Assembly (NCBI RefSeq): GCF_023336905.1
Contig: NZ_JAMBLS010000003.1
Location: forward strand, 124,001 to 188,000
Reading direction: 5' to 3'
DNA length: 64,000 nucleotides
Source: Bacteroides sp. ET71
GTDB lineage: Bacteria; Bacteroidota; Bacteroidia; Bacteroidales; Bacteroidaceae
A model generated the notes under the pieces. The model was not told where the DNA came from. It ran no database searches and saw nothing but the letters and a program-made list of their open reading frames with translations. How positions within the stretch are numbered: position 1 is the stretch's first letter; every line of letters begins with the position of its first letter. A program made the translations under genes and the position numbers. Of this stretch, positions 1,296-62,723 are shown one piece after another.

Positions 1296-1355
1296 CCGGA
1301 CGACGGCCGCGCCTGCTCCGCACACCGGCCGCGCCCGCTCCGGACAGGAAGCGGC
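1296..1355 (+). repeat. 22-nt-period intergenic repeat, copy 1
   Basis: Two full 22-nt units (1296-1317 and 1318-1339) and a partial third (1340-1355) each begin CCGGAC or CCGCAC and carry GGCCGCGCC in the middle. The period is exactly 22. The array belongs to the same family as those at 3760, 9526, 34741, 39322, 44544, 48898, 51591, 57615 and 62644. Confidence 0.7.
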
Positions 1356-1398
1356 AGCCGACGGAAGAAACAACGCCTCCCCTATCCTTCAGGGGCAC

Positions 1399-1522
1399 TG
1401 TCATTCTGAGCGGAGCGAAGCGCAGTCGAAGAATCTCACGACAGGCAGAAAGGACACAACGGAAACGCCGGAAAGACATTAGGGAGATGTTTCGACTGCG
1501 CTACGCTCCGCTCAACATGACA
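1399..1522. repeat. Dispersed palindromic repeat, single copy
   Basis: The left arm reads TGTCATTCTGAGCGGAGCG and the right arm ends GCTCCGCTCAACATGACAG; the two are near-complementary across about 120 bp. The same element recurs at 30450-30530, four times at 32569-33202, and at 58997-59275. The rest of the 1199-1721 gap is AT-rich with no convincing gene except the peptide at 1722. Confidence 0.8.
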
Positions 1523-1721
1523 GGAAGAGGCGCGCGGAAGGAGAAGAACCGATTCCCAACCGCACTTTTATCGACTTTCGAAAGAAATTTATCGTTTTTC
1601 GATAAAAAATTGCCGTTTTTCTTGATAGTTTCAAAAACTTCGCTTTTCTTTGCAGCGTGGATGCCGCACGGCCGGCGGACAGACCGCGAAAAAGAAACGA
1701 ACATATCAAAAGGATTCGGTT

Positions 1722-1811
1722 ATGAAAAGAACATTCTTAAGCATCACGACGCTGGTAGTCTCCCTCTCCGTGACGCTGAGTTTACTGATTGGCCTGGCCA
1801 TCCCCGCCTGA
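1722..1811 (+). CDS. 29-residue hydrophobic membrane peptide
   Basis: A 30-codon reading frame (MKRTFLSITTL... to ...LLIGLAIPA, TGA at 1809-1811) encodes a peptide with a basic N-terminus and a continuous hydrophobic stretch from about residue 6 to 27, long enough for one membrane span or a bare signal peptide. It lies 36 nt before the CPBP protease gene on the same strand and downstream of an AT-rich region suited to a promoter. I do not recognise the family. It could be a leader peptide or a small partner of the protease. Codon use looks like the surrounding genes. Confidence 0.5.
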   Translation: MKRTFLSITTLVVSLSVTLSLLIGLAIPA

Positions 1812-1847
1812 GGGAAGGCCCGGACGAAACACTAAAACGCATGTACA

Positions 1848-2663
1848 ATGAAAGCAAGCATTAAACTATTCTTTATCTACATCGTGCTGAACCTGCTGGG
1901 CAGCCTGGCCGCCGTGCCCTTGGTGCTGGTGTGGCAGTTTGTCACGACAGGCACGGTGGATGCCGAGACCGCCGGCGCACAGACATTCGTGCCCGGCTCG
2001 TTATTGTTCATGTTCTTCACCGTGTGGTATTTGTGGAAGCAGCGTTACCTGGACGATTACCGCCAGTACGTCCCCACGTCGGCGGGCTACCTGGCGTGGA
2101 CAGCCCTGCTGGTGCTGACGGTCGGCATCGTGATGGAATGGGTGATGGGTCTCCTGAGCTTCCTGCCCGACTGGTTCGAACAGGACTTCGACCAGATGCG
2201 GGACAACTGGGTGGGCATCCTCTACATCTGCCTGCTGGGGCCGGTGCTGGAAGAGCTGGTATTCCGCGGCGCCATCATGCGCGAACTGCTGCGCCGCAAC
2301 CGCCCGTGGGTGGCCATCGCCGCCTCCGCCCTGCTCTTCGGCCTCATCCACTTCAACCCCGTGCAGACGGTCAACGCCATCCCGCTGGGCATCCTCCTGG
2401 CATGGCTCTACTGGCGGACGCGCAGCCTGGTGCCGGGCATCGTGTACCACGTGTTGCACAACAGCCTCGCCACGTGGCTCACGCTGCGCTACCCCGACGT
2501 CGAGACCCTGCGCGACCTCTGGGGGCCGGACGTGCACACCGCCGTGCTCTGCGGCTCGGCAGTCGTCGTCCTCGCAGCCCTGTGGCGGCTGAGCCGATAC
2601 CCGGCCACGGGCGAGGCGGGATGGCTGCCTACGACGAAAGAAACGGATAAGACAACAGATTGA
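1848..2663 (+). CDS. CPBP-family intramembrane glutamic endopeptidase
   Basis: Predicted multi-pass membrane protease of the CPBP/Rce1-like (Abi) family, 271 aa. The three family motifs are visible: EELVFRG (Glu135-Glu136, Arg140), FGLIHF with His168, and HVLHNS near residue 205. Several hydrophobic segments flank them. Family members cleave prenylated or peptide substrates inside the membrane in self-immunity or bacteriocin maturation, but the substrate here is unknown. It sits between a tiny hydrophobic peptide and a DUF2975/XRE pair, all on the plus strand with 24-36 nt gaps, so co-transcription is likely. Confidence in the family is high and in the function low. Confidence 0.9.
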   Translation: MKASIKLFFIYIVLNLLGSLAAVPLVLVWQFVTTGTVDAETAGAQTFVPGSLLFMFFTVWYLWKQRYLDDYRQYVPTSAGYLAWTALLVLTVGIVMEWVMGLLSFLPDWFEQDFDQMRDNWVGILYICLLGPVLEELVFRGAIMRELLRRNRPWVAIAASALLFGLIHFNPVQTVNAIPLGILLAWLYWRTRSLVPGIVYHVLHNSLATWLTLRYPDVETLRDLWGPDVHTAVLCGSAVVVLAALWRLSRYPATGEAGWLPTTKETDKTTD

Positions 2664-2687
2664 ACTCACGTAAACAAAACACTGAAC

Positions 2688-3374: not shown

Positions 3375-3400
3375 CCCCGTAAGGAAAGGAAGAAAAAGAC

Positions 3401-3607: not shown

Positions 3608-3718
3608 ACGCGACGCCCCGAAACGCAACGCAACACCCCGAATTGCCATATGCACTTTGCAGATAGTGTTACCGATGTATAAAAGTGCTTCCGATTAAAG
3701 AAAAATTTCCCTAATCCG

Positions 3719-3749
3719 GTTGCCCGCAAGCAGAAAAATATTACCTTTG
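3719..3749 (+). promoter_or_regulatory. Promoter of pckA
   Basis: GTTG (3719-3722), a 19-nt spacer and TACCTTTG (3742-3749) match the Bacteroides sigma-ABfr consensus. Transcription would start near 3756, giving a leader of about 150 nt that begins almost exactly where the 22-nt repeats begin. Confidence 0.7.
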
Positions 3750-3759
3750 CAGGCGAAAA

Positions 3760-3858
3760 CCGAAGGGCACGGAAATCCCGTCCGAAGAAGAAGGAAATCC
3801 CGTCCGAAGAAGAAGGAACTCCCGTCCGAACACGGAGCAACTCCCGTCCGAAGCGGAA
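3760..3858 (+). repeat. 22-nt tandem repeats in the pckA leader
   Basis: Four complete 22-nt units (3760-3781, 3782-3803, 3804-3825, 3826-3847) and a partial fifth (3848-3858). Each starts CCGAA and ends TCCCGT. Units 2 and 3 differ at a single base. Because 22 is not a multiple of three, the array is not a coding repeat. It lies between the predicted transcription start and the pckA start codon. Confidence 0.85.
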
Positions 3859-3906
3859 AGAAATACAGATAATAAACCAAAGTACCAATTTAATAACTTA
3901 AAGAAA

Positions 3907-5514: not shown

Positions 5515-5538
5515 GCAAAGCCCAGACAATCTATATGC

Positions 5539-9525: not shown

Positions 9526-9600
9526 CCGCACAAGGGGCGTGCCTGTTGTCCGGACGGGGAACGGCTCTTGCGCGTCGGGGCGGCACGCCCCTCTGCGGGT
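9526..9600 (-). repeat. 22-nt-period intergenic repeat
   Basis: Three to four GC-rich units with spacing of 21-24 nt. Read on the minus strand, one unit begins CCGGACAACAGGC and is followed by CGCCCCTTG, closely matching the unit at 44582. It lies just past the stop codon of the DUF4890 gene. Confidence 0.6.
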
Positions 9601-15417: not shown

Positions 15418-17253
15418 TCACAGGCCGGCGGCGTGCTGCGCGGCCTCGGCTTCGGCATACATGCGGTCTATCTCGTCCTTGAAATGCTCGCTGACCACCG
15501 ACCGCCGCAGCTTGAGCGTATTGGTCAGCTCGCCCTGCTCCATGCTGAAGGGACGGGACAGGAGCGTGAAGCGCTTCACCTGCTCGTAGTGGGCAAACTG
15601 CTGTTGCAGCGTGGCGATGCGGGCCTGAAAGAGCGCGATGATTTTGGGATGGCGCAGCAGCTCATCCAGCGAACTGTAGGTGATGCCCTTGCGCGCGGCA
15701 TACTCCTTGACGTACTCGTAGACGGGGACTATCAGGGCGGAGACGAACTTGCGCCGGTCGGCGATGATGGCAATCTGGTCGATATAACGGTCGATGGCCA
15801 GGCGGGTCTCCAGCGCCTGGGGCGAGATGTACTTGCCGTTCGAAGTCTTGAACAGCTCCTTGATGCGCCCGGTCAGGAACAGGAAGCCGTCGCGCAGGTA
15901 GCCCGCATCGCCCGTGTGGAACCAGCCGTCCGCATCGAAAGCCGCGGCGGTGGAGACGGGTTTCTTGTAATAGCCGTCGGTGATGCTGCGGCCCCGCAGC
16001 AGGATTTCCTGGTTGTCGGCAATGCGCACCTCCAGCCCCGGGATGACGCGCCCCACCGAGCCTATGCAGAACCCCTTGACGGGGAAGAGCGAGACGGTGG
16101 CCGTCGATTCCGTCAGGCCGTAGCCCACCATCATGTTCAGCCCCACGGAGTGTGCGAAGCGGCAGATTTCGTCGCTCACGGCAGCGCCGGCCGTCGGGAA
16201 GAAGTTGCCGTTCTCCAGCCCGATGGTCTTCTTCAACAAGGCGTAGACGGTCTTCTCGTAAAACTTATACTTCATGCGCAGCATCAGCGGGGGCGTCTTG
16301 CCCTCGTTCACGTAGTCCACGTTGTGCAGTTCGCCCGTCTTCAGCGCGTCCATCATCAGGGCCCGGCGCAGGGGACTTTCGCGGGCGATGCGCTCGTGCA
16401 CGCCCTGGTAGACCTTCTCCCAGAATCGCGGGACACTGCACATCACCGTGGGCCTCACCTCGCGAAGCGACTGCTGCACGTCGGCCGGCCGCAGGTTGAC
16501 ACAGACCAGGACACCGCGGCGCAGGCAGAAGTAAGTCCACGCCTTCTCGAAGATGTGCGTCAGCGGCAGGAAGTCGAGCGACACGTCGCGGTCGGTCAAG
16601 ACGCTGAGCAGCTTGTCGTGCGTGCGGAAGATTTCGTCGTAGTTGCTGTGGCGTAGCATCACGCCCTTGGGTTCGCCGGTGGTGCCCGACGTGTAGAGTA
16701 TGTTCACCAGGTCGTGCTCATCGCCCCGGGCCGTGCGCGCGTCGACCTCGGCCTGGTGCGGGCATCCCTGGCCCAACTGCAAGAACTCGTCCCAATAGAC
16801 CGACGTCTGGTCGCGCGGGTCGCGCCGCACCGAGCGGTCGAAGATAATCATCTGGAGCAGCGACTCGCAATAGCCGAACACGGAGAAAGCGGCGTCGTAC
16901 TGAAACTGTTCGCCCACAAAGAGATAGCGTATGGCGGCGTCGCCCACGATGTACTGCACCTGCAAGGCCGAGCTGGTGGCGTAGAGCGGGATGGTGACGG
17001 CGCGGTTGGCAAAGGCGGCGAAGTCCACCGCCAGACATTCAGGCTTGTTTTGCGAGAAGATGCCCACGTTCTCCCCCTCCTGCACGCCGAGCGCCACGAG
17101 TGCGCTGGCCGCCGTGCGCACGGTCCGTTCGAAGTCCTTCCACGACACGGGCACCCACGTCCCCGTGCCATAATCCCTGTATTTCAGTGCCGTCCTATCG
17201 CCATATTTGGCCGCCTGCCGCTGCACCAGTACCGCCATTTCCTGTTGAGCCAT
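15418..17253 (-). CDS. Long-chain acyl-CoA synthetase (AMP-forming)
   Basis: Activates fatty acids to acyl-CoA through an acyl-adenylate. 611 aa, full length for the FadD/FAA-like group. The ATP motif YTSGTTGEPKG is at residues 187-197. GYGLTES, the later GWFHTGDAGYLRDG, and GRIKELFKTSNGKYISP supply the A5, A7 and A8/A10-type motifs. Lys in NGKYISP is the expected catalytic Lys. The gene has its own promoter and ends at the shared terminator with rpsO. It is probably used for phospholipid remodelling or exogenous fatty acids. Confidence 0.95.
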   Translation of the reverse strand: MAQQEMAVLVQRQAAKYGDRTALKYRDYGTGTWVPVSWKDFERTVRTAASALVALGVQEGENVGIFSQNKPECLAVDFAAFANRAVTIPLYATSSALQVQYIVGDAAIRYLFVGEQFQYDAAFSVFGYCESLLQMIIFDRSVRRDPRDQTSVYWDEFLQLGQGCPHQAEVDARTARGDEHDLVNILYTSGTTGEPKGVMLRHSNYDEIFRTHDKLLSVLTDRDVSLDFLPLTHIFEKAWTYFCLRRGVLVCVNLRPADVQQSLREVRPTVMCSVPRFWEKVYQGVHERIARESPLRRALMMDALKTGELHNVDYVNEGKTPPLMLRMKYKFYEKTVYALLKKTIGLENGNFFPTAGAAVSDEICRFAHSVGLNMMVGYGLTESTATVSLFPVKGFCIGSVGRVIPGLEVRIADNQEILLRGRSITDGYYKKPVSTAAAFDADGWFHTGDAGYLRDGFLFLTGRIKELFKTSNGKYISPQALETRLAIDRYIDQIAIIADRRKFVSALIVPVYEYVKEYAARKGITYSSLDELLRHPKIIALFQARIATLQQQFAHYEQVKRFTLLSRPFSMEQGELTNTLKLRRSVVSEHFKDEIDRMYAEAEAAQHAAGL

Positions 17254-17280
17254 GATGATGTGCTTTTTAGTGAGACGTCA

Positions 17281-17311
17281 CAAAGTTATACATTTTTTTA
17301 GAAAAAACAAT
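17281..17311 (-). promoter_or_regulatory. Promoter of the acyl-CoA synthetase gene
   Basis: Minus strand: ATTG (17308-17311), 19 nt, TAACTTTG (17281-17288), 28 nt before the start codon. Confidence 0.7.
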
Positions 17312-17351
17312 ACTTGGGGCGCTTATTTTCTCGGCACGCGTCCGCCGCCCA

Positions 17352-17412
17352 CCCAGGACGCACACGAGCCATGCTTCCGGCGGACAACGGACACGGCCCG
17401 GGCGCACATCGG
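17352..17412 (+). repeat. 61-bp direct repeat, left copy
   Basis: The stretch beginning CCCAGGACGCACACGAGCC is repeated with one mismatch at 21271-21331 in the same orientation. The two copies bracket the three-gene lipoprotein operon. Internally it resembles a variant of the 22-nt-period repeat. Confidence 0.85.
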
Positions 17413-17423
17413 GCAGGAGAAAC

Positions 17424-17459
17424 AAAAAAGACGCGGCCTCCCATACGAGGAAACCGCGC
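17424..17459 (-). terminator. Terminator of the lipoprotein operon
   Basis: On the minus strand, a CGCGG...CCGCG-type stem with an inner TCC/GGA pairing is followed by TCTTTTTTG. It lies 42 nt past the stop of the 17501 gene. Confidence 0.75.
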
Positions 17460-17500
17460 CCAAAGACTGTCCTTCCCGGTCTAAGCAGCCGGCAAGAGGG

Positions 17501-18529
17501 TCATTTGCTCTGTTTGCGCCACATATCGTTCAGTTTCGCAGCCTCCAGCTTCTTGAGAGATTGGGGCGACAGCGGAGCGGGCTTGAAGCTGCCGGCCTTT
17601 ATCTGGCGATTGACAGCCGAAACGGAGATGCCTTCGTCCAGTGTAAAACGGATGACCTGGGTCATGTCGCCTTCACCCGCACCTACGGGGTAGACGCCCG
17701 ATGCCGGATTCGAACCCAACTCATTGTTCACTTCATTGCCCTTGTAGCGGGCTACGACCGACCAACTGGTGGCAATCGAAGGCTCGCAGTTGGCATACAT
17801 ATCGACGATGACCGTGTACGTGCCAGCCTGTATCAGTTCGGCCGGAATGTAAATGTTTTCATTGTTCAGGTTGTCAATATCGCATGCGGCGTTCGAGTCA
17901 TGGTCCAAACCGTAGCTCACCGTATGCCCGTCGGCCGTCTCCACCGTCCCGCCGGGTTCACCGTAATAGATGTGTTCGCCGCTGGGCATAATGAGGTGCA
18001 GGTCCACGTCCTTGGCGTTGCTGAAGGTCAGGTTGATGTTCAGGTCACCCGACTGGCTCTCAACATAGGTAATCTCCGTCTCGTAGGGCTCGGTGATGTC
18101 CCCGCTCTCATCCTCACCACTGATCAGCATGGTGATGTCCGAGCTGTAAGTGGTACTGTAGTTGACGGGGATAATGTACGTATTGCTCCCTCCGTCGGAC
18201 TCTGCCCGATTGACCGGTGCATCAGGCACGTATTCCCAATAGCCTTCCACACCCTGCACGCCGATGAAGAAACGGTTGTATCTGACATCGGAGACAATGG
18301 TGATGAAGTTCATGCCTCCACTCAGGGCGCGGTCGTTAACCGTAACGCCTTGGAGCGTAGCCGTCGAAGTGGCCGCAGGGAACTGCCCCGACTGGTATTG
18401 GGCGTTTTCAATCGAGAAATACTGCTGTTCCAGTTCGCTCTTACCCGGATTACCTCCGTCGTCGTCGCTGCACGATGCCAGTGCGCTCCCCAGCAGGAGC
18501 AGGCACCACATAAACACTTGCTTTTTCAT
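17501..18529 (-). CDS. Lipoprotein with DUF2135-like domain
   Basis: A 342-aa lipoprotein: lipobox LASC (Cys20) followed by SDDDGG, the acidic sequence typical of Bacteroides surface-exported lipoproteins. The C-terminal half (about residues 170-265) has DVDLHLIMPSGEHIYYG, then DHDSNAACDIDNLNNENIY and AGTYTVIVDMY, the pattern of DUF2135 beta-sandwich domains. The N-terminal half looks beta-rich and is unrecognised. It is 30 nt downstream of the 795-aa lipoprotein gene in the same operon, so the two likely act together at the cell surface. No enzymatic motif is apparent. Confidence 0.75.
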   Translation of the reverse strand: MKKQVFMWCLLLLGSALASCSDDDGGNPGKSELEQQYFSIENAQYQSGQFPAATSTATLQGVTVNDRALSGGMNFITIVSDVRYNRFFIGVQGVEGYWEYVPDAPVNRAESDGGSNTYIIPVNYSTTYSSDITMLISGEDESGDITEPYETEITYVESQSGDLNINLTFSNAKDVDLHLIMPSGEHIYYGEPGGTVETADGHTVSYGLDHDSNAACDIDNLNNENIYIPAELIQAGTYTVIVDMYANCEPSIATSWSVVARYKGNEVNNELGSNPASGVYPVGAGEGDMTQVIRFTLDEGISVSAVNRQIKAGSFKPAPLSPQSLKKLEAAKLNDMWRKQSK

Positions 18530-18559
18530 TTTCTTGTTCGCTTTAAGTTAAACATAAAT

Positions 18560-20947
18560 TTATGGTTGTACCAAGTTAATCTCCATTTCATGCGGGACGC
18601 CATCGGCAGATGCCGAAGACAAGCCACGCACATTTGGCGCACCAACCACCGTGCAACCGGTGAAGCTGCTTCCGTCATGATGGTAAGAAGCATAGGCGCT
18701 GCTCTGACAAGAAGTGCCATGAGTGCTGTCACTGCCCGTCAAGTAGACGCGATAGTCGCCGTTGAAGTTCTTCTCATCGTAGTAATAATTGACCGTCAGC
18801 ACATTGGCTCCATCTACCGGGTCGATGGAATAGTCCGGCAGATTCCAGCCGTTCCAGCCGTTTCCTTGCGCTTCCGGACTGACACTCAGCCAGTAGCCGC
18901 CCTTTGCGGTGAAATAGAACTTGAAGGTCGACTTATAGTCATACGTACGTCCCTGATAAACCGTGTTCGTCTCCGTGCCTTGGAAGACGCAATCGGTCAA
19001 CACAAGCGACGAAGTGGTGGGATAGTTCAGAGCGAACTCCAGCGTTTGGCCGAACGAAGGATTCTCGTCGTCGGCATAGTGCACGTATCCGCCGAAGCGG
19101 GCTGTGGCTTCCGGCTCGTTCTTGGCATAGGCAAACCTTGTGTCCGTATAGGGCGACTGGTTTCCGTTCAAGGAGACCAGCACGCGCTGGCCATATTCAT
19201 CCTCGTAGTAGTATCCCCAGTCGGTGATTTCGCGCTCGCCCTCGTCTGTAAGTTCAGCCGTCACGGCACAATCATACTTGAAGGAATAGTTTCGCCCGTT
19301 GAAAGAATAATGGTCGGGATAATAGGAAGCATCGGTCACTTCCACGCCAGTCACCTCTACGGGGAAGGAGGAGGAGAAGTTGATGCCTCCTTCTTCATAG
19401 CTGTTGCCCAGCAGTTCGATGTAGGGCACGGCAGTGTATTCGGTGTCCCGCTCCAAGTCGGCCAGGGTGAAGTCGAAGTCCGTAGGGCCTTCCGGCGTGA
19501 TACTGGCATCGTAGGGCACGGACATGACTTCTTCTTCGTCTTTATAGACGCGCAGGCCGGGGGTGATGTCCATGAAGCGCATCAGCACCCCGCGTTCTTC
19601 CAGGCTGTATCCGGCGTCGAACAGCAAGTCTATCGTCCCAGTGCGTTCGCGGACAAAGAGGGAGTTCTCTGCCAGTTTGGGCAGCAGTGGGAAGGAAGTG
19701 TTCCAAAGGTTCCAGGAGCGCATATTGATTTCTTCGTCGGCAATCTCGACTCCCACCAATGCTGCGCGGAAAATGCCGCTCAGGTCTGCCACCAAATCGA
19801 TGTCGAGGGACGAGCCTTTGGAAAACAGCTCCGGATCATCCAAATTAAAGTCGAAAGAAGGCCCGAAGGAAAGCTCCGGACGCAGACCGATGGCGATATC
19901 GCGTGTATAAAGTCCTATGCCAAGCTCGGCTCGAAGCACCAAGGCAGCACTTCCTTGCGCGTTTATTTCCAGGTTTTTCAGCAAATCATTTGCAGCCGGA
20001 CGGGTGGTGTTCTCCCGGAAAAAGCCGTCTGTCACGTCGTCGCGTTTAAATCCGAACTTAAGCCCGAACTGTTTGGAGACTCCGGTATGTATGTCGCCCT
20101 CAAATTCAGCAGTCACGTCGAGGCCGACGTCCACATACGGGCGCAACACGACGGGGCCGATGTAAGCCACTCCCTGTATCAGATTTTCTTTCTGAAAGAT
20201 GGTCTTTTCATACTCCACCTTCTCACTGGTGCCACAACCGATGTTGGCTTCGAAACCGCCCATCGTTTCCAGCGAGCACTCGTAGGTATTGTCCAGCATG
20301 GAATAATTAATCGTGGCAATCAGCCCCAACGAAAGCGTGCCCGACGTATAGAAGCCGTTCTCCTGACCCGCCCTTACCGGTATCTGCAACACGTTGGGGG
20401 AACCGATGGTAGCTTTCGTGTCGGCTTCATAGTCTGGGTTGTCCCATTCCTCGTAGGGCACGACCCGGGCCTCGTGGAAGTTGCCTTCATCGTCGTAAAA
20501 CCCGTCTATCGTGTCCAGCAATGCCTGCGTGTACGTAAACTCCAGTTCCTTGAAAATCTGGTCCAACGGGGCAGCCGTGGTGACGCAACGGTAAGCGTCG
20601 CCCGCGTCGGTCACGGATACGACACTGCCGCCCAGGCCGTAGGGCAGCATCTCGGTCTGCCGACTGGACAAGATGTCGCCCACTTCGGGCAACACTTCGT
20701 CCGGCGTGCTTTTCGAGAAATAAAGGATGCTGTCTTCTTCCACCCGGACAATGTAGCCGCTCTTCGCAGGTGTCAGCACCTGCACGTCTTCCTGGTACTG
20801 GTAGGTGATGCTGTAAGAATCCGTTTCTTCCTTCACCGGCTCTTCCATGCCTTCCACGGGGTCTTCCTGAAACCCGCCTGTTTCGTCGTCCGAACACGAC
20901 CACAAGAGGCAAGCTGCCAACAGTGCGATAAAATACGATTTGCGCAT
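18560..20947 (-). CDS. Large surface lipoprotein, unknown function
   Basis: A 795-aa lipoprotein with lipobox LWSC (Cys18) followed by SDDETGG, an export signal for the outer leaflet. The rest is beta-rich and acidic. The middle part (about 190-430) contains many aromatic-alternating strands, and the region 430-560 (ITPEGPTDFDFTLADLERDTEYTAVPYIELLG) looks like a fibronectin-III-type domain. I do not recognise the family. It sits between a 49-aa membrane protein and the DUF2135-like lipoprotein, and the whole operon is flanked by 61-bp direct repeats. Confidence 0.75.
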   Translation of the reverse strand: MRKSYFIALLAACLLWSCSDDETGGFQEDPVEGMEEPVKEETDSYSITYQYQEDVQVLTPAKSGYIVRVEEDSILYFSKSTPDEVLPEVGDILSSRQTEMLPYGLGGSVVSVTDAGDAYRCVTTAAPLDQIFKELEFTYTQALLDTIDGFYDDEGNFHEARVVPYEEWDNPDYEADTKATIGSPNVLQIPVRAGQENGFYTSGTLSLGLIATINYSMLDNTYECSLETMGGFEANIGCGTSEKVEYEKTIFQKENLIQGVAYIGPVVLRPYVDVGLDVTAEFEGDIHTGVSKQFGLKFGFKRDDVTDGFFRENTTRPAANDLLKNLEINAQGSAALVLRAELGIGLYTRDIAIGLRPELSFGPSFDFNLDDPELFSKGSSLDIDLVADLSGIFRAALVGVEIADEEINMRSWNLWNTSFPLLPKLAENSLFVRERTGTIDLLFDAGYSLEERGVLMRFMDITPGLRVYKDEEEVMSVPYDASITPEGPTDFDFTLADLERDTEYTAVPYIELLGNSYEEGGINFSSSFPVEVTGVEVTDASYYPDHYSFNGRNYSFKYDCAVTAELTDEGEREITDWGYYYEDEYGQRVLVSLNGNQSPYTDTRFAYAKNEPEATARFGGYVHYADDENPSFGQTLEFALNYPTTSSLVLTDCVFQGTETNTVYQGRTYDYKSTFKFYFTAKGGYWLSVSPEAQGNGWNGWNLPDYSIDPVDGANVLTVNYYYDEKNFNGDYRVYLTGSDSTHGTSCQSSAYASYHHDGSSFTGCTVVGAPNVRGLSSASADGVPHEMEINLVQP

Positions 20948-20968
20948 AATGAATAGATTTAATATAGA

Positions 20969-31482: not shown

Positions 31483-31663
31483 TTAGTTGACAAGGGGACA
31501 AGTTAACGAGGCTACAAGGACGAGGGAACGAGACTGCAAGGACGATGACAAAAGACAAGGGAACGAATCGGCTAAATCCTCGTCAACTCGTTCCCTTGTC
31601 AACTTGTCAACTCGTCAACTAAAAGCCTTGTAGCCTCGTTAACTTGTCCCCTTGTCAACTAAC
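31482..31663. repeat. Perfect 38-bp inverted repeat after a stop codon
   Basis: The left arm 31482-31519 (GTTAGTTGACAAGGGGACAA...) and right arm 31626-31663 are exact reverse complements over 38 bp. Inside, ACAAGGGAACGA and TCGTTCCCTTGT make a second hairpin. Built from GACAAG/GACGAG/GTTAAC words also seen at 31834, 46196, 58915 and 60690. Confidence 0.9.
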
Positions 31664-31669
31664 ACCCCG

Positions 31670-31780
31670 TCAACCGACGGCGTTCATCGCGCTGGCGCCC
31701 AGTGCCCCGGCGATGGCCGAGAGGATGGCGATGGCTACTTTCAAAATCTTATCCCAAAGGTTCTTCTTTTGTGTGTTCAT
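31670..31780 (-). CDS. Smalltalk-family micro-protein
   Basis: A 36-aa protein (MNTQKKNLWDKILKVAIAIL...SAMNAVG): a basic start, a Trp, then a small-residue-rich hydrophobic span SAIAGALGASAM. This is the pattern of the Bacteroides smalltalk proteins, which are usually encoded between an HU-like DNA-binding protein and an N-acetylmuramoyl-alanine amidase. The HU-like gene is indeed upstream here (31905-32387), but no amidase follows; the outer-membrane gene on the other strand begins instead. Function unknown; possibly a membrane peptide of a phage-derived module. Confidence 0.8.
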   Translation of the reverse strand: MNTQKKNLWDKILKVAIAILSAIAGALGASAMNAVG

Positions 31781-31833
31781 ACGTTTCTGTTTTTTGAGTT
31801 AAAGCAATCTGTTAAGGTATTTATTCAGTGGAC

Positions 31834-31891
31834 GAGTTGACGAGGGGACGAGTTAACTTGTAGCCTCGTCAACTTGTCCCCTCGTCAACTC
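31834..31891. repeat. Inverted repeat between smalltalk and HU-like genes
   Basis: The 21-nt arms at 31834-31854 and 31871-31891 (GAGTTGACGAGGGGAC type) match with one G-T pair. Same word family as the 38-bp inverted repeat. Confidence 0.8.
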
Positions 31892-31904
31892 AACAGCTAA
31901 ATGA

Positions 31905-32387: not shown

Positions 32388-32568
32388 AGTCTAAAAAAGT
32401 TTTTGAGTTTACTAATAGGTTTGTTTTCTCTTTGTGTCGTTTAGGCCTTATCGACAGTGCAAAGGTAGACATTCTTTTCAAAACAGATACGCGTTTCGGA
32501 CAAAACCGTTCCACACCATGCATTTTTTTTCTGATTGCGATGCGCAAGAGGCACTGCCCGCCTTCTCT

Positions 32569-33236
32569 GTCATGTTGAGCGGAGCGAAGCGGAGTCGAAA
32601 CATCCCACTATGAGAACACACGTCCTTAGGGAGATCCTTCGACTGCGCCCTGCGGGCTCCGCTCAGGATGACAGAAAGAGAACGTTACCCTACCCTCTCT
32701 ATCATGTTACCCCGCTTCCCCTGTCATGTTACCCCACCCTCTCTGTCATGTTGAGCGGAGCGAAGCGGAGTCGAAACATCCCACTATGAGCACACACGCC
32801 CTTAGGGAGATCCTTCGACTGCGCCCTGCGGGCTCCGCTCAGGATGACAGGAAGAGAACGTTACCCGACCCTCTCTATCATGTTACCCCGCTTCCCCTGT
32901 CATGTTACCCCACCCTCTCTGTCATGTTGAGCGGAGCGAAGCGAAGTCGAAACATCTCACTATGAGAGCACACGCCCTTAGGGAGATCCTTCGACTGCGC
33001 CCTGCGGGCTCCGCTCAGGATGACAGGAAGAGAACGTTACCCTACCCTCTCTATCATGTTACCCCACTTCCCCTGTCATGTTACCCCACTCTCCCTGTCA
33101 TGTTGAGCGGAGCGAAGCGAAGTCGAAACATCTCACTATGAGAGCACACGCCCTTAGGGAGATCCTTCGACTGCGCCCTGCGGGCTCCGCTCAGGATGAC
33201 AGGGAAAAACACTCAGGGTGACAGAAAAGAACACGC
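32569..33236. repeat. Tandem array of four ~176-bp palindromic units
   Basis: Units start at 32569, 32744, 32920 and 33096 (spacings 175, 176, 176). Each unit is a palindrome (TGTCATGTTGAGCGGAGCGA ... GGGCTCCGCTCAGGATGACAG) plus a linker with two short TGTCATGTTACCCC repeats. The array fills most of the 874-nt gap between the HU-like and DUF4373 genes. The peptides encoded across it are artefacts of the repeat. Confidence 0.92.
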
Positions 33237-33261
33237 TGAATGACAGGAAGAAACGCCCGCA

Positions 33262-34740: not shown

Positions 34741-34829
34741 CCGCACGCCGGAGACGCCCCGCACGCACACCGGACGGCGCCGCCACCCGCAACGACGGCA
34801 CACACACCCGTCCGGCCCGGACGCAGCAA
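34741..34829 (+). repeat. 22-nt-period intergenic repeat, degenerate
   Basis: GC-rich units with spacing 22-26 nt (CCGCACGCCGGAGACGCCCC, CGCACACCGGACGGCGCCGC, CCGGCCCGGACGCAGCAACG). The least regular member of the family. Confidence 0.45.
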
Positions 34830-34852
34830 CGCCCCGGCAGCGGCAGCGGGAC

Positions 34853-39321: not shown

Positions 39322-39403
39322 CCCACCGGGCCTGACGCCCGCGGCGCACCACGGGCAACGCCCCTGCGGACGAGGGCCACGGCCACCGTCCGCACCAGCC
39401 GAT
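39322..39403 (+). repeat. 22-nt-period intergenic repeat before susC
   Basis: Units such as GCGGACGAGGGCCACGGCCA and CCGCACCAGCCGATG begin directly after the phosphoesterase stop codon. Spacing 22-24 nt. Confidence 0.55.
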
Positions 39404-44543: not shown

Positions 44544-44640
44544 CCCACACCGGCCCGCCGTCCGCACCAGAGACGGCCCCTCCGGACAAGAGGCACACCC
44601 CTTGCGGACGGCAGCCATCCCGACAGGACGACGGGCCCCG
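44544..44640 (+). repeat. 22-nt-period intergenic repeat after susD
   Basis: Units starting at 44562, 44582 and 44604. The 44582 unit is CCGGACAAGAGGCACACCCC plus TT. The array begins directly after the susD stop codon. Confidence 0.65.
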
Positions 44641-44682: not shown

Positions 44683-46194
44683 ATGAAACTGAAGAATTAC
44701 ATAACAGCCTCGGCCCTCGTGCTGGCCACCCTGCTGTGCGGAAGCTGCGACGACGACGAGCAGACCGTGGCCAAAGCCGTGCTGGCCAGCGCCTCGGCCC
44801 TGAACTTCGAGGCAGAAAACGCATCCCAGCAAATCATCACTGTCTATTCCGACGCCCAATGGGTGATGGACGAACTGCCCGAATGGATTAGCGTGACGCC
44901 CGTCACCGGACAAGGCACCACGGAAGTCACCGTGTCCGTCACCGACAACCTGCGCGAAGGCACCGTCGACAATCCCCGCGAGGCCACCATCGTCTTCCGA
45001 GGCAACACACTGGCCAGCCGTGCCGAAGTGACCGTCTCGCAAGACGGAGACAAGTACCGCGACTGCCAGGAATACACCGTCGACCAACTGCCCGCCCTGG
45101 CCGACGAGACCGTGGTCATCGTGCCCGAAGCCCTCGTGACAGCCGTCAGCACCTCGGGCTGCATCGTCAGCAGCGACACCTACGACACCCACATCTTCCT
45201 CGAGACCACCGCCACTGTCAGCGTGGGCGACCGCGTCTACATCCAAGGCTCGAAAGACACCGACAGCCGCTCGCTGACCTACGTGGCCTGCGATGACGTG
45301 AGCATCCTCACCAGCGGCAACCCCGTCCAATACCCCGAAGCGACCGACATCACCGCCAACCTCGACAGCTACAACGCCACCAGCCGCGAATGGCTGTCCG
45401 TCACCGGAGTGCTCAACGGCAGCACCCTCACCGTGGAAGACGCGTCCAACTCCGTCTCCATCATCGACGCACCCGCCTCGCTCGGCCTGGACGAGCTCAA
45501 CGGCCACCGGGTGACCCTCCGGGGCTACTTCGACGGCGTGGAAGCCCCCGTGCTGCGCCTCATCGTCGCCGAAGTGGACGACCTGGGCCTGGTCGAGCAG
45601 ATATACTTCAGCGATGACTTTGAGTGGCTGCAACCGTGGGCAGAGAACAGCGGCGCCGGACAGACCGTAGAAAACGACGGCACGGGCGACGCCCCCCAAA
45701 TCTATTCGGCCAAGAACGCCGACGGACAGACGGCCGCCGAAGCCCTCGTGCTGCACGGCTACGGCCTGGAACAGACGCCGGGCAACGCCATCTACCTGCA
45801 GAAGAACTACCTGAAGTTCGGCAAGACCGACTACCAGGCTGGCCTGACACTGCCGGCCCTCACAGAAGTGCCCGCCGGCACGAGCCTGAAGTTGACATTC
45901 GACTGGGCACCGATGGTGGGCGGCACGCGCAAGTTCGACCCCGTGCAAGTAATAGTCTCTGTCACCACCAACGGCAACACCGTCGAGATGGAGCCTATCG
46001 GCCACAGCTTCGTCGACACACAGGACAAGCTGGAGTGGCTGCACGCCGAGGTGGTGATTGACGGGGCAGACATCACGCCCGAAAGCCTCATCAGCATCAA
46101 GTCCAACGACTGGGGTGCCAACGAGGACAACACCGGCAGCAAGGTTTACCGCCGCTGGTTCATCGACAACATCAAGCTGATGCGGGCAGAGTAA
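44683..46194 (+). CDS. BACON-domain surface lipoprotein
   Basis: A 503-aa lipoprotein (lipobox CGSC, Cys22, then DDDEQ, a surface-export signal). Residues 35-115 form a BACON domain (LNFEAENASQQIITVYSDAQWV ... WISVTPVTGQGTTEVTVSV). Residues 120-300 look like a DUF5689/OB-like domain, and 305-503 a jelly-roll with DDFEWLQPWAENSGAG and a closing WFIDNIKLMRAE, the choice-of-anchor or carbohydrate-binding type. Third in the susC-susD operon, so it is probably a surface glycan-binding protein. The substrate is inferred from the neighbouring enzymes only. Confidence 0.85.
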   Translation: MKLKNYITASALVLATLLCGSCDDDEQTVAKAVLASASALNFEAENASQQIITVYSDAQWVMDELPEWISVTPVTGQGTTEVTVSVTDNLREGTVDNPREATIVFRGNTLASRAEVTVSQDGDKYRDCQEYTVDQLPALADETVVIVPEALVTAVSTSGCIVSSDTYDTHIFLETTATVSVGDRVYIQGSKDTDSRSLTYVACDDVSILTSGNPVQYPEATDITANLDSYNATSREWLSVTGVLNGSTLTVEDASNSVSIIDAPASLGLDELNGHRVTLRGYFDGVEAPVLRLIVAEVDDLGLVEQIYFSDDFEWLQPWAENSGAGQTVENDGTGDAPQIYSAKNADGQTAAEALVLHGYGLEQTPGNAIYLQKNYLKFGKTDYQAGLTLPALTEVPAGTSLKLTFDWAPMVGGTRKFDPVQVIVSVTTNGNTVEMEPIGHSFVDTQDKLEWLHAEVVIDGADITPESLISIKSNDWGANEDNTGSKVYRRWFIDNIKLMRAE

Positions 46195-46195
46195 G

Positions 46196-46256
46196 ACAAG
46201 CTACGAGTGACAAGAGACAAGTTACGAGTGACAAGAGATAAGTCACGAGTGACCAT
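46196..46256 (+). repeat. GACAAG/GAGTGACAAG tandem repeat
   Basis: Imperfect 22-26 nt repetition of ACAAG-TTACGAGTGACAAGAG right after the stop codon. Same word family as at 31482 and 60683. Confidence 0.6.
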
Positions 46257-48563: not shown

Positions 48564-49000
48564 AATTGAGAATTGAGAATTGAAAATTAAGAAATAAAAG
48601 ATGAGTAAATGGAGAATTGAGAATTGAAAATTAAAAAATAAAAGATGAGTAAATGGAGAATGAGAAATTCTTTAATTGAGAATGGAGAATTAGGAATTGA
48701 GAAATAAAAGACGAGTAAATGGAAAATGGAGAATGGAAAATTAAGAAATAAAAGATGAGGATGTTGAGAATGGGAAATTCATAAATGGAGAACTGAGAAT
48801 TAAAAATTAAGAAATAAAGGCGGAGGGTATTCCACTGTGAAACAAACTAAAGACATTTCGGACAAAGGCTACGAAGCCTCTCGCAGAAGCAAACTCCGAA
48901 GGACAAGCGCGCCCCGTGTCCGGACGAAGCGCGCCCCGTGTTCGCCGCAGCCTACAGCCCTCGCCTTTATTTCTTAATTTTTAATTCTCAATTCTCAATT
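48564..49000. repeat. 35-bp inverted repeat bracketing an AT-rich repeat region
   Basis: The left arm 48564-48598 (AATTGAGAATTGAGAATT...) and right arm 48966-49000 are reverse complements with one mismatch. Between them are about four imperfect copies of a GAGAATTGAGAATTGAAAATT-like unit alternating with AAATAAAAGATGAGTAAATGG. The 48898-48957 segment is a 22-nt-period repeat. No gene. Confidence 0.85.
48898..48957. repeat. 22-nt-period intergenic repeat
   Basis: AAGCGCGCCCCGTGT recurs exactly 22 nt apart (48905 and 48927), each preceded by GGAC(A/G). The unit is a quasi-palindrome, so orientation is uncertain. Confidence 0.7.
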
Positions 49001-51590: not shown

Positions 51591-51701
51591 CGACACGGCG
51601 GAGAAAACCGGGGAAACACTCCGGCCCGACCCCGCTGCGGCCGCCACGCGCAAGAGCCGCGCCCCGTGCGGACAAGAGCCGGCGCCGGAACGGACGGGAG
51701 G
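51591..51701. repeat. 22-nt-period intergenic repeat
   Basis: Units around 51645-51700: CAAGAGCCGCGCCCCGTG, CGGACAAGAGCCGGCGCC, CGGACGGGAGGC. The left part is more degenerate. It fills much of the gap between GH3 and tRNA-Leu. Confidence 0.6.
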
Positions 51702-57544: not shown

Positions 57545-57614
57545 AGCCAAAAGGGCAAGCCACTGCACCCCGCAGCGGCTTGTTTCGTTTATGCCCCGCG
57601 CCCACGCCGGACAA

Positions 57615-57662
57615 CGGCCGCGCTTCTTGCGAACAGTAGCCGCGCCCGCATCGGACAAGAGG
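57615..57662 (+). repeat. 22-nt-period intergenic repeat
   Basis: Starting CCGGACAACGGCCGCGCTTC (57608 on), then CGAACAGTAGCCGCGCCCGC and CGGACAAGAGGC, spacing 22-23 nt. Almost the same sequence as copy 1 at 1296-1355. Confidence 0.7.
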
Positions 57663-58904: not shown

Positions 58905-58914
58905 GCTTCAGGGA

Positions 58915-58977
58915 CGAGAGACAAGGGACGAGGAGACGAGAGACAAGAGACGAGGGGACGAGAAATCAGGGACGAGG
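58915..58977 (+). repeat. GACGAG/GACAAG repeat
   Basis: Imperfect reiterations of GAGACAAGGGACGAG after the stop codon. Same word family as the elements at 31482, 46196 and 60683. Confidence 0.6.
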
Positions 58978-58996
58978 CCGGCCAATCCCCGCTTCC

Positions 58997-59275
58997 CGCT
59001 ATCCTGAGCGGAGCAACGAAGCTCCACCCCCATCATGCGCTGTCATCCTGAGCGGAGCAACGAATCCCCACCCCCATCATGCACTGTCATCCTGAGCGAA
59101 GCAACGAATCTCCACCCCCATCATGCACTGTCATCCTGAGCGGAGCAACGAATCCCCACCCCCGTCATGCACTGTCATCCTGAGCGGAGCGCAGCGGAGT
59201 CGAAGGATCTCACTAAAGACACAGAAACCCTTAGTGAGATGTCTCGACTCCGCTGCGCTCCGCTCGACATGACAG
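58997..59275. repeat. 44-bp tandem repeats ending in a full palindromic repeat
   Basis: TGTCATCCTGAGCGGAGC recurs at 59041, 59085, 59129 and 59173 (exactly 44 bp apart), with an earlier partial copy at 58997. The last copy runs into the whole palindrome, whose right arm ends at 59275 (GCTCCGCTCGACATGACAG). The 468-nt gap to 59372 holds nothing else. Confidence 0.9.
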
Positions 59276-60662: not shown

Positions 60663-60682
60663 TTCTTGAACTGAAAAAAGGG

Positions 60683-60900
60683 TTAGTTAACGAGGGGACG
60701 AGTTGACGAGGGGACAAGGGGGTGTGGACAAGTTAACAAGAACGAAGGGACAAGTTAACAAGTTGACGAGTTGACGAGGCTTTGGAAACGAATTGACACG
60801 GTGGCGGACAAACGAAGCGGCGAATACGCCCTTGTTGCCTGACGCCTTGTCAACTTGTCAACTCCCCCTTGTCCACTCGTCCACTTGTCTACTCGTCCAC
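60683..60900. repeat. GACAAG/GACGAG inverted repeat region
   Basis: The left part (GTTAGTTAACGAGGGGACGA ... GACGAGTTGACGAGGC) and right part (GCCTTGTCAACTTGTCAACTC ... GTCCACTCGTCCACTCCCC) are mostly reverse complementary. The right end enters the 3' end of the CYTH gene, whose last residues are encoded by the repeat. Confidence 0.75.
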
Positions 60901-61388: not shown

Positions 61389-61393
61389 GGCGT

Positions 61394-61531
61394 TCAGGCC
61401 CAGAGGGTGTAGGCCACGAAAGAAAGGAGGATGAGCACGACGGCCACGATGGTGATGGTGCGCATTACTTTTTTGGCTTGTTCTTCTTCACGTTGCGTGT
61501 GCGTCACGCGGTTTCTGTTGCTTCTTCCCAT
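61394..61531 (-). CDS. 45-aa single-span membrane protein
   Basis: A small frame with a charged N-terminal half (MGRSNRNRVTHTQREEEQAKK) and one hydrophobic span (RTITIVAVVLILLSFVAYTLWA). It sits 5 nt before the CYTH gene on the minus strand and has its own promoter, so it is the first gene of the operon. I do not recognise the family. The larger reading frame that contains it extends antisense through the AraC gene and is not coding. Confidence 0.7.
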   Translation of the reverse strand: MGRSNRNRVTHTQREEEQAKKVMRTITIVAVVLILLSFVAYTLWA

Positions 61532-61565
61532 GGTGTTTAGTTTTAGTTTATCGTTCAACGGAGAG

Positions 61566-61597
61566 CAAAGTAAGGGGAATTTCCGGAAGATTCCAAG
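61566..61597 (-). promoter_or_regulatory. Promoter of the small membrane protein/CYTH operon
   Basis: Minus strand: CTTG (61594-61597), 20 nt, TTACTTTG (61566-61573), with TT for TA in the -7 box. Confidence 0.55.
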
Positions 61598-61623
61598 GAA
61601 AAGCGGTAGAAATTTACGCGAAG

Positions 61624-62523
61624 TCAGTTCAGGTTGTATTCCGAGGGTGCCTGGCCGGTGTATTTCTGGAACACGAGGTTGAAGCGGGCGATGCTGTTGA
61701 AGCCCAGTTGCCGGGCCACTTGCGCGGGCGTATGCGTCCCCGTCTGCAAGAGCCGTTTGGCCATCTCCAGGCGGCGCAGTTGGAAATATTCGGCCAGGTT
61801 CTGCCCCGTCTCGAAGCGCAGCAGGTCGCCGAAGTAGGCCTCGCTCAGCCCCAGCAGCCCGGCACAGTCGGCGGCTGCCGGCATCCGCCCGCCCGCCATG
61901 CGTCCGGCGCCGATGTAGTCGTCGGCCCAGCGCCCCAGTTGCGCCAGCAGACGCTTGTTCTTGTCCTCGCGGGTGATGAACTGCCGTTCGTAATAGCGCG
62001 CGCAATAGTCCAGCAGCAGCTCGATGAGCCGGGAGAGGAGCGTGCGGCTGTGGCCGTCGATGGCGTGGTGCAGCTCTTCGTCGATGTCGTCGAAGTAGTG
62101 GCGCACGCGCTCCGTCTCGCGCTGCGACAAGTGCAGGGCCTCTTCCTGGCGGTAGTGGAAGAAGGTGTACTGGTCGATGTGGCGGCACAGCGCGGTGCTG
62201 AGCAGCAGCATCGGGTCGAAGGCCAGCAGCAGTCCGCGCGGGGGCAAAGTGTTTTCCTTGCTCATGCGGAACGCCTCGCCGGGAGTGAGGAACACCATCG
62301 TGGCGTAGGCAAAGTCGTAGTAGCGGCGTCCGCAGCAGTCGCCGCACCCGGCACTGTCTTCTATCAGCAAGATGGCGTAGAAGTCAAACTTCACCGCCTG
62401 CTGTTCCAGCCCGGGATTCTCCAGGTTGATGACGGCAGCCTGCGGGTGCCACGTCTTGCTGCCCAGGCAGCGGTTGCACTCGCACACAGTCTTTATGTCC
62501 AGCACATTTTCCTTTTTCTTCAT
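61624..62523 (-). CDS. AraC-family transcriptional regulator
   Basis: A 299-aa regulator. Residues 1-190 form a cupin-like effector domain; the C-terminal AraC domain has two HTHs, the first around LGLSEAYFGDLLRFETGQNLAEYF and the second around ARQLGFNSIARFNLVFQKYTGQAPSEY. The N-terminal part has two Cys clusters, CECNRC and CGDCCG, unusual and possibly metal- or redox-sensing. The start at 62523 (MKKKENVLDIKT) leaves room for the minus-strand TATCTTTG (62567-62574). It is divergent from the TonB receptor gene and may control it. Confidence 0.9.
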   Translation of the reverse strand: MKKKENVLDIKTVCECNRCLGSKTWHPQAAVINLENPGLEQQAVKFDFYAILLIEDSAGCGDCCGRRYYDFAYATMVFLTPGEAFRMSKENTLPPRGLLLAFDPMLLLSTALCRHIDQYTFFHYRQEEALHLSQRETERVRHYFDDIDEELHHAIDGHSRTLLSRLIELLLDYCARYYERQFITREDKNKRLLAQLGRWADDYIGAGRMAGGRMPAAADCAGLLGLSEAYFGDLLRFETGQNLAEYFQLRRLEMAKRLLQTGTHTPAQVARQLGFNSIARFNLVFQKYTGQAPSEYNLN

Positions 62524-62643
62524 ATCGGCTCGATTCCCCGCAGGGGGACTGATGGTTTTCCGGCGGCAAAGATAGCTGTTTCCCGCCAACACCCCCCTAC
62601 CCGCTTTACAGATTCTTTAACCTTTCTCACCGATTTTTATGCC

Positions 62644-62723
62644 CCGGCGCAAGCACGCCCGCCCGTGTGCGGAGTGGACATGGCTACAGTTCGGAGGAAT
62701 GACGCCCGCTCCGCACAAGAGGC
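62644..62723 (+). repeat. 22-nt-period intergenic repeat before the TonB receptor
   Basis: GCACGCCCGCCCGTG, TGCGGAGTGGACATGGCTAC, TCGGAGGAATGACGCCCGCT and CCGCACAAGAGGC spaced 20-23 nt. It lies between the AraC gene and the receptor -7 box TACCTTTG at 62785-62792. Confidence 0.55.

What the first reader, a model, noticed from the sequence alone, without database searches (positions are those of the whole stretch)
1296..62723. A dispersed family of short intergenic arrays with a period near 22 nt
Seen in the sequence: at least ten gaps (1296, 3760, 9526, 34741, 39322, 44544, 48898, 51591, 57615, 62644) carry 2-4 GC-rich units spaced about 22 nt. Typical units start CCGGACAAG or CCGCAC and end CGCCCCGT or GCCCGCT, and the unit is a quasi-palindrome. 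Exact 22-nt spacing occurs at 1296, 3760, 44582 and 48905. Sequences drift between loci but the period holds, which suggests selection on spacing (two helical turns, or a binding register on RNA). Most copies sit directly after a stop codon or in a leader. I know of no described element with this form.
Basis: partly seen in the sequence, partly recalled or inferred. Interest (0 to 1): 0.75.

Follow-up and report, generated by a model that had tools for sequence, protein, structure and literature searches.

The report
Palindrome arrays with a 22-nt ruler
Gaps between genes in this gut bacterium and its relatives are dotted with small repeat arrays that differ widely in sequence but mostly step by 21-24 letters and are often built of mirror-image (palindromic) units, which points to an unexplained rule about spacing rather than one shared sequence.

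Summary
A profile trained outside the window hits all ten reader loci, three weakly; same-strand hits lie 22 nt apart 25 times, 44 five times, other distances at most twice. In 858 kb (24%) of the host genome, intergenic tandem segments have lags 22 (40), 23 (13), 24 (7) or 21 (6), none at 17-20, 0-1 at 25-36; shuffles give almost none and coding DNA no 21-24 peak. The 86 arrays form 61 sequence families. Many units are dyad-symmetric with both-arm changes. Arrays differ between close species. The peak appears in sampled Bacteroides-group DNA, not in small samples of other orders, classes or E. coli. In two palindrome families spacing is exact while most spacers differ: 10 of 10 and 28 of 28 pairs. 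Closest known: the P. gingivalis BrickBuilt 23-nt minisatellite and B. fragilis 22/23-bp VNTRs. Best reading: minisatellites duplicating unit by unit, with dyad and step held by a DNA-level constraint, perhaps packing of a dyad-binding protein. Mechanism remains open.

The parts
1296..1346 (.). GC-rich palindromic unit array, period 22, about 2.3 copies
   Evidence: TRF 1304-1346 P22; held-out profile hits at 1296 and 1318
3760..3864 (.). period-22 array, 4-5 copies, purine-rich unit, weak match to the GC-rich profile
   Evidence: TRF 3771-3864 P22 x4.3; lag-44 segment starts at 3760; weak hits 3804/3826
9526..9569 (.). two GC-rich units 22 nt apart
   Evidence: profile hits 9526 and 9548
   Evidence: profile hits 17358 and 17380; ORF 17252-20956
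   Evidence: profile hits 21277 and 21299
34741..34837 (.). degenerate GC-rich units; one weak minus-strand pair 22 nt apart
   Evidence: weak hits 34741, 34747, 34769, 34815, 34816; pair 34747/34769
39344..39387 (.). two GC-rich units 22 nt apart, in the 80-nt gap before the SusC-type gene
   Evidence: profile hits 39344 and 39366; neighbours
44560..44603 (.). two GC-rich units 22 nt apart, after the SusD-type gene
   Evidence: profile hits 44560 and 44582; neighbours
48896..48941 (.). two GC-rich units 22 nt apart
   Evidence: TRF 48901-48941; profile hits 48896 and 48918
51646..51689 (.). two GC-rich units 22 nt apart
   Evidence: profile hits 51646 and 51668
57607..57650 (.). two GC-rich units 22 nt apart, in the leader or uncertain N-terminus of a radical SAM gene
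   Evidence: profile hits 57607 and 57629; gene
62642..62716 (.). degenerate GC-rich units; a weak minus-strand pair 44 nt apart
   Evidence: hits 62642, 62651, 62689, 62695; pair 62651/62695
1567..1611 (.). palindromic 21-nt tandem repeat (TTTATCGACTTTCGATAAA type)
   Evidence: TRF P21 x2.1; stem of the TRF consensus z 3.4
32557..33254 (.). 176-nt (8 x 22) repeat with inner 22-nt repeats of other sequence
   Evidence: TRF rows at 32557, 32684, 32860, 33036, 33190
46194..46253 (.). 21-nt tandem array
   Evidence: TRF P21 x2.9; lag-21 segment
48558..48818 (.). AT-rich array with periods 44, 66 and 110
   Evidence: TRF
58913..58977 (.). 22-nt array of 7/8-nt words
   Evidence: TRF P22 x3.0
59001..59190 (.). 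44-nt array x4.3
   Evidence: TRF

Best explanation
These are intergenic minisatellites built on a 21-24 bp step, about two DNA turns. The typical unit is a dyad-symmetric (palindromic) core of roughly 11-19 bp plus a short spacer. Shown here: the step is shared by unrelated sequences; units resemble their nearest neighbours most, so arrays grow mainly one unit at a time; arms change together; arrays are present, absent or different in the same gap of close species; in two dispersed families spacer length is fixed while most spacers differ. Inferred: array length changes by slipped-strand duplication helped by hairpins, while the dyad and the step are kept by a DNA-level reader, most simply a dimeric or structure-reading DNA-binding protein with a footprint near 22-23 bp that packs side by side on the array.
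For: Sharp lag spectrum in intergenic DNA only. 61 families in 86 arrays; unit identity 0.884 for neighbours (64 pairs), 0.84 and 0.82 two and three units apart. Dyad excess: 24 of 40 arrays with >=2.8 copies rank in the top 10% of 30 column-permuted versions. Covariation: 69 of 94 cells paired in 17 columns that vary on both sides versus 49.1 +- 3.9 permuted, 0 of 1000; a hand-picked 18-unit family has 79.1% standard pairs versus 68.1% shuffled and 25-38% slid. Exact step: 10 of 10 and 28 of 28 pairs although 2-30 nt was allowed, with 9 distinct spacers in 10 and 20 distinct in 28. One pair of arrays read as orthologous: palindromes 0 of 56 changed, spacers 15 of 36, flanks 76% and 85% identical. 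No RNA wobble bias. Unit number varies among B. fragilis isolates at a 22- and a 23-bp non-coding array (PMC7585543, section 5 read).
Against: Hairpins of unlike sequence that lie next to each other show no 22-23 nt preference, so a general geometry reader is not shown. In the 23 own arrays that could be tested, stems are hardly better conserved between units than spacers (0.902 versus 0.885; stem higher in 9 arrays, lower in 12). About 60 families in a quarter of the genome are too many for one dedicated sequence-specific protein each. Flanking genes share no theme. The GTATC linkers keep a loose consensus, so copying still explains part of their likeness. The mode is 22-23, not 21, so a B-DNA helical-face argument is only approximate. 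Many arrays, for example 3760 and 58913, have no clear palindrome.
Confidence: 0.4

Rival explanations
1. Neutral or selfish minisatellites: hairpin-assisted slipped-strand replication makes tandem duplications, template switching between arms keeps the units palindromic, and the 22-24 nt step is a property of the replication machinery in this lineage. No reader and no function.
For: Neighbouring units are most alike; stems hardly better kept than spacers in own arrays; unlike hairpins not on a grid; no orientation preference; one array has drifted in place like its surroundings between host and G221; both-arm changes are also expected from template switching (idea seen in passages of PMC4060949).
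Against: No sign of the step in coding DNA even at the in-frame periods 21 and 24 (1 each at score >=16 in 591 kb), although coding constraint could remove such repeats. Exact spacing with mostly different spacers, and 0 of 56 palindrome changes beside 15 of 36 spacer changes, are not expected without constraint. Classical slippage has no ruler.
Confidence: 0.35
2. Arrays of RNA hairpins in untranslated regions that stabilise, insulate or attenuate mRNA, like E. coli REP/BIME arrays.
For: Some arrays fill the gap between co-directional genes, e.g. prfA-DUF4153, where the array begins 8 nt after the stop and ends 4 nt before the next start; GC-rich clusters nearer the upstream stop in 23 of 31 co-directional gaps.
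Against: Stem mismatches on the sense strand are A.C 30, G.U 11 (counts not independent within arrays). Arrays are co-directional 63 of 86 versus 255 of 386 for all gaps and occur in divergent gaps too.
Confidence: 0.12
3. MITE-like mobile elements, as BrickBuilt in P. gingivalis: the repeat rides in a transposable element.
For: Same unit family at several loci and in several species; same gap without an array, or holding another family, in close relatives.
Against: In two dispersed families the flanks of non-orthologous arrays share no sequence: flank matches were found in 4 flank pairs (AACAT, 10 loci) and 1 flank pair (GTATC, 7 loci), which I read as three orthologous locus pairs, so no leader, tail or terminal repeat is seen. 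No Y1 transposase match in the genome; other transposase families were not searched.
Confidence: 0.08

Closest known systems
BrickBuilt minisatellite/MITE of Porphyromonas gingivalis (Klein 2015, PMC4596501; abstract, passages, and sections 5, 7 (part 1) and 8 read)
   Same: Intergenic 23-nt tandem repeats without spacers, 1 to 22.8 copies, predicted stem-loops, repeat number differs between strains at one locus; the paper also mentions 22-, 23- and 41-nt repeats in strain W83.
   Different: One sequence with leader, tail and IS5-like terminal repeats, found by its authors in P. gingivalis and P. gulae. Here many unrelated sequences share the step, and flanks are not shared in the two families tested.
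Bacteroides fragilis VNTR typing loci TR1 (23 bp) and TR5 (22 bp) (PMC7585543; passages and section 5 read)
   Same: Non-coding, 22/23 bp, TR1 palindromic; these two have the highest diversity index of eight loci in 50 isolates. The TR1 palindrome family is the one followed.
   Different: Used as typing markers; what I read does not discuss the shared period, palindromes or relatives.
REP/BIME elements with RAYT (recalled)
   Same: Short intergenic palindromes, often clustered.
   Different: REPs are defined by sequence and a Y1 transposase; no Y1 match here, and the constant is the step, not the sequence.
TAACTGA heptamer repeats of Beggiatoaceae, Cyanobacteria and some Bacteroidetes (PMC4679880; passages incl. 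most of the abstract seen)
   Same: Abundant short intergenic direct repeats of unknown role.
   Different: One 7-nt word, mostly just upstream of putative start codons in the main genome studied.
CRISPR arrays (recalled)
   Same: The AACAT and GTATC families have like palindromes with differing spacers of fixed length.
   Different: Spacers of 9-12 nt, units of 22-24 nt, dispersed between ordinary genes. No cas search was made.

Membership tests
BrickBuilt MITE | 23-nt tandem unit, intergenic | tested here: met
   13 lag-23 and 40 lag-22 intergenic segments at score >=16; met by the lag-23 subset
BrickBuilt MITE | shared leader and tail with terminal inverted repeats | tested here: not met
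   no shared flanks except between loci read as orthologous, in two families, 17 loci, 250 nt each side; other families not tested
BrickBuilt MITE | one unit sequence | tested here: not met
   61 families among 86 arrays at a 72% identity threshold
REP/BIME | RAYT (Y1 transposase) in the genome | tested here: not met
   PF01797: 0 matches in G000; 5 of 14 control genomes ring
REP/BIME | intergenic palindrome | tested here: met
   not in every array
CRISPR | long spacers and cas genes | tested here: inconclusive
   spacers 9-12 nt, so the length feature fails; cas genes were not searched for
protein-binding site array (iteron type) | conserved core with free spacer sequence and fixed spacing | tested here: met
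   AACAT and, less cleanly, GTATC families only; in 23 own arrays stems are hardly better kept than spacers
protein-binding site array (iteron type) | a bound protein | not testable with these tools
   needs pull-down or footprinting
structured RNA | wobble-tolerant stems on the sense strand | tested here: not met
   A.C 30 versus G.U 11

The most novel reading that the evidence does not exclude
Bacteroides-group genomes carry a sequence-independent architectural system: dozens of unrelated palindrome families held to one 22-24 bp grid in intergenic DNA by a single geometry-reading factor, or made by a dedicated copying enzyme with a two-turn ruler, with fast replacement of the sequence and slow change of the geometry.
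Probability: 0.3. Interest if true: 0.88.

Novelty: new variant of a known kind. Interest (0 to 1): 0.74.

Why it matters
A repeat class defined by step length and symmetry rather than sequence would be missed by sequence-based repeat libraries. It is common (arrays in 74 of 391 intergenic regions examined), two arrays of this kind already serve as hypervariable typing loci (PMC7585543), and it sets a clear question: what measures 22-24 bp in Bacteroides DNA, a protein footprint or the replication machinery? Both answers can be tested in laboratory strains.

Tried and rejected
One sequence element: rejected, 61 families at a 72% threshold.

RAYT/REP: no Y1 transposase match.

RNA register: wobble test negative.

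Regulon: 20 proteins beside 11 host gaps with arrays, and 10 proteins beside six AACAT loci, are ordinary and unrelated.

Region-blind mutational ruler: coding DNA has no 21/24 peak, though coding constraint could hide one.

Grid for all hairpins: unlike neighbours are not on a 22-23 grid; a small excess at 33 nt was left unexplained.

Wide synteny comparison with G015, G016 and G020: only 2-3 gene pairs per genome could be compared, so turnover rests on the prfA, ppk and gcvP gaps and one G221 stretch. The G221 array before gcvP was read by eye as five degenerate units; the lag scan at score >=12 did not report it. In the 15-kb G221 stretch one host array (C4 111527) is kept in place, against the picture of constant replacement.

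Residual lag-22 signal after masking detected arrays is weak (z 2.1; lags 11, 33, 21 and 12 are higher).

Caveats of choice: the profile seed was typed after viewing arrays. Loci of the AACAT and GTATC families were found by exact palindrome searches, so core identity is partly by construction; spacer length, spacer letters and the unsearched units are not. The five genomes were chosen by a fixed-spacing search of 99. Of the four palindromes, two per locus were required exact by the search. The identity figures leave out L294 but still hold one pair of loci later read as orthologous (L290, L286). The 18 units of A1 were picked by hand from four arrays; the two G221 units equal to host units were left out, and three units were cut by one base to fit a 22-nt frame. 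One search's genus set includes loci fetched because they flank arrays and is not used as evidence of distribution. In one search, stretches under 5 kb were dropped (1 of 20 genus, 3 of 20 order), one order stretch (G206, L180) is in fact of the same genus, and the class-level segments at lags 21-24 are a run of N or an AAT run. Unit identities at 6 or more units apart come from few arrays. Gene calls come from my own simple script, not a published caller.

Literature: eight searches of the PMC library found no description of a shared 22-24 nt step; passages of PMC5771137, on P. gingivalis genomes, say short repeats were not annotated. Subscription journals and preprints are not held.

Full report
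WHAT WAS CLAIMED.

IDENTITY OF THE HOST. The window is G000:C3:124001-188000 of a 3.63 Mb assembly. It carries SusC/SusD-type genes. The closest named relatives listed for polyphosphate kinase are Candidatus Bacteroides intestinipullorum, pullicola and merdigallinarum (86-89% amino-acid identity), so it is a Bacteroides-like bacterium.

CHECK OF THE OBSERVATION. TRF finds intergenic arrays with periods 21, 22, 44, 66, 110 and 176 in the window. Of the 25, 13 are on the plus and 12 on the minus strand, largely the same units read both ways. All ten reader loci are hit, three weakly; 62644 has no 22-nt pair. Two new pairs appear at 17358 and 21277. Of 41 plus hits 26 have a minus hit at +6, i.e. 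the unit is nearly palindromic. At >=12 bits the profile gives 189 hits in host intergenic DNA (6-13 in five single-base shuffles) and 199 in coding DNA (224-251), so it is not enriched in coding DNA. G221 has 5 hits in 3.5 kb and G007 (L150) 4 in 4.0 kb, G015 3 in 11.3 kb; most other relatives sampled have none or no more than their shuffles.

IT IS NOT ONE ELEMENT. In 858 kb of host DNA (391 intergenic regions, 144.6 kb) I counted segments that match themselves at a given lag. At score >=16: lag 22, 40; 23, 13; 24, 7; 21, 6; 11, 9; 14, 4; 16, 7; lags 17-20 none; lags 25-36 none or one; multiples 44, 46, 66 and 69 follow with 19, 11, 10 and 6. Excluding the window contig: 32, 13, 7 and 4 at lags 22, 23, 24 and 21. 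Ten dinucleotide shuffles gave one lag-22 segment in all at score >=12, where 55 were observed. In 591 kb of coding DNA there were none at 22 or 23 and one each at 21 and 24. The 86 arrays lie in 74 of 391 regions and form 61 sequence families at a 72% threshold, 52 of them single. So the constant is the step, not the sequence.

ANATOMY. Among 40 arrays with at least 2.8 copies, 24 have a stem in the top 10% of 30 versions with permuted columns. Stem columns that vary on both sides (17) pair in 69 of 94 cells, against 49.1 +- 3.9 when arms are dealt anew, 0 of 1000 reaching it. In a hand-picked 18-unit family from the host and G221 (alignment A1) 79.1% of cells pair, 68.1 +- 2.4 shuffled and 25-38% when partners are slid; the covariation score is 0.296 against 0.152, while the count of pairs with a both-side change (6) is reached by 48 of 500 shuffles and that of further pair types (10) by 145. 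Not all arrays are palindromic. In the 23 own arrays that could be tested, stems are hardly better conserved between units than spacers (0.902 and 0.885). Neighbouring units are most alike (0.884), then 0.843 and 0.82 at two and three units apart, which means growth mainly one unit at a time.

TURNOVER. Behind prfA the host has a 23-nt array that begins 8 nt after the stop and ends 4 nt before the next start; G015 (prfA 98% identical) has a 9-nt gap, G016 (97%) an unrelated 23-nt array, G020 (95%) a 14-nt gap. Before gcvP the host has a 23-nt array of 7.6 copies; G221 (gcvP 95%) has there, read by eye, about five degenerate 22-nt units of another family, which the lag scan did not report. After gcvP both share two units and then differ in number and in both arms. 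Between ppk and ppx the host, L023 and L025 have three unrelated arrays and L024 none. In contrast one array in a 15-kb G221 stretch is kept in place without a change of unit number.

DISTRIBUTION. In 80 named loci around ppk, lag 22 gives 27 segments in 19 loci at score >=12, other lags from 15 to 30 at most 6. In stretches of up to 20 kb: genus, 19 used, lag 22 gives 12 in 9 stretches, any other lag from 14 to 31 at most 4; order, 17 used (one of them, G206, same genus), 2, one of these low-complexity; other orders of the class, 13, none once runs of N are removed; other classes of the phylum, 7, one weak. Four 50-kb stretches of E. coli K-12 gave none at 22 and one at 21. These samples are small, so absence outside the gut Bacteroidales is only indicated.

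SPACING WITHOUT SEQUENCE. Two dispersed families test whether the step is merely copied. For GTATCNGATAC, six genomes searched with a spacer of 2-30 nt allowed gave 28 pairs in five genomes, all exactly 23 nt apart; the 28 linkers are 20 distinct sequences (my count, either strand) with a loose common pattern. Three of the six genomes were known. For AACATCCGGATGTT, the palindrome of a published B. fragilis typing locus (PMC7585543), five genomes gave 10 pairs, all exactly 23 nt apart although 2-30 nt was allowed, with 9 distinct spacers; these five were chosen from 99 by a fixed-spacing search. With up to 3 mismatches allowed, 27 of 27 neighbouring AACAT cores, and with up to 2, 20 of 20 GTATC cores, less than 60 nt apart, are 23 nt apart in the fetched loci. 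Within AACAT arrays palindromes are 0.886 identical and spacers 0.48; between loci 0.891 and 0.431, composition alone giving 0.285. In one pair of arrays read as orthologous (flanks 76% and 85% identical) four palindromes show 0 of 56 differences, the three spacers between them 11 of 27, and with the nine bases after the last palindrome 15 of 36. Half of those palindrome positions were required exact by the search, so the fair count is 0 of 28. Flanks of non-orthologous copies share nothing detectable. Against a general rule: in the host, adjacent hairpins of unlike sequence show no 22-23 preference. Some arrays switch palindrome in the middle and keep the 23-nt phase (L240, L241, L243).

LEVEL OF ACTION. 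Sense-strand stem mismatches are A.C 30 and G.U 11, so there is no sign of RNA wobble. Orientation of flanking genes is unremarkable, 63 of 86 co-directional against 255 of 386. The neighbouring genes examined are ordinary. This favours DNA-level causes.

COMPARISON. BrickBuilt in P. gingivalis (PMC4596501; abstract, passages, sections 5, 7 part 1 and 8 read) is a 23-nt intergenic minisatellite inside a MITE; the terminal repeats and shared flanks that define it were not found for the two families tested here. B. fragilis TR1 (23 bp) and TR5 (22 bp) have the highest diversity of eight typing loci in 50 isolates, which shows in print that two non-coding 22/23-bp arrays change length. Eight searches of the PMC library found no account of the shared step.

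VERDICT. The arrays, their step and their dyads are real (about 0.95). That the step is actively held, rather than produced by copying alone, is likely for the AACAT family, plausible for GTATC and open for the rest. Mechanism confidence is 0.4 for a DNA-level reader and 0.35 for a neutral replication ruler.

Noticed in passing
L290:1455-1491, L286:1547-1583, L293 and L294:1547-1583: In the AACAT family the four-base centre is CCGG, GGGG or CCCC, and at L290, L286, L293 and L294 (two orthologous pairs by flanks) a GGGG unit is followed by a CCCC unit, its reverse complement or nearly so.
   Followed up: partly
L031:about 8091 onward: The ppk-ppx gap of Caecibacteroides pullorum carries a long array with a step near 40 nt; lags 40-42 are also raised in the 80 ppk loci, recalling the 41-nt repeats reported in P. 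gingivalis.
   Followed up: no
window 31483-31904, 46194-46253, 60663-60857: Intergenic arrays of 7/8-nt words (GACAAGTT, GACGAG), sometimes grouped into 21-24 nt higher units.
   Followed up: no
window 32557-33254 and 59001-59190: Repeats of 176 and 44 nt around a GAGCGGAGC motif are whole multiples of 22.
   Followed up: no
host and genus intergenic DNA: Neighbouring hairpins of unlike sequence are somewhat over-represented at a centre distance of 33 nt (1.5 x 22).
   Followed up: no
host arrays: Sense-strand stem mismatches are A.C nearly three times as often as G.U, the reverse of what an RNA hairpin would give; a few arrays dominate the count.
   Followed up: partly
window 17252-20956: A predicted ORF of 1234 aa has no Pfam match at E <= 0.001, and a GC-rich 22-nt pair lies near its uncertain start.
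   Followed up: no
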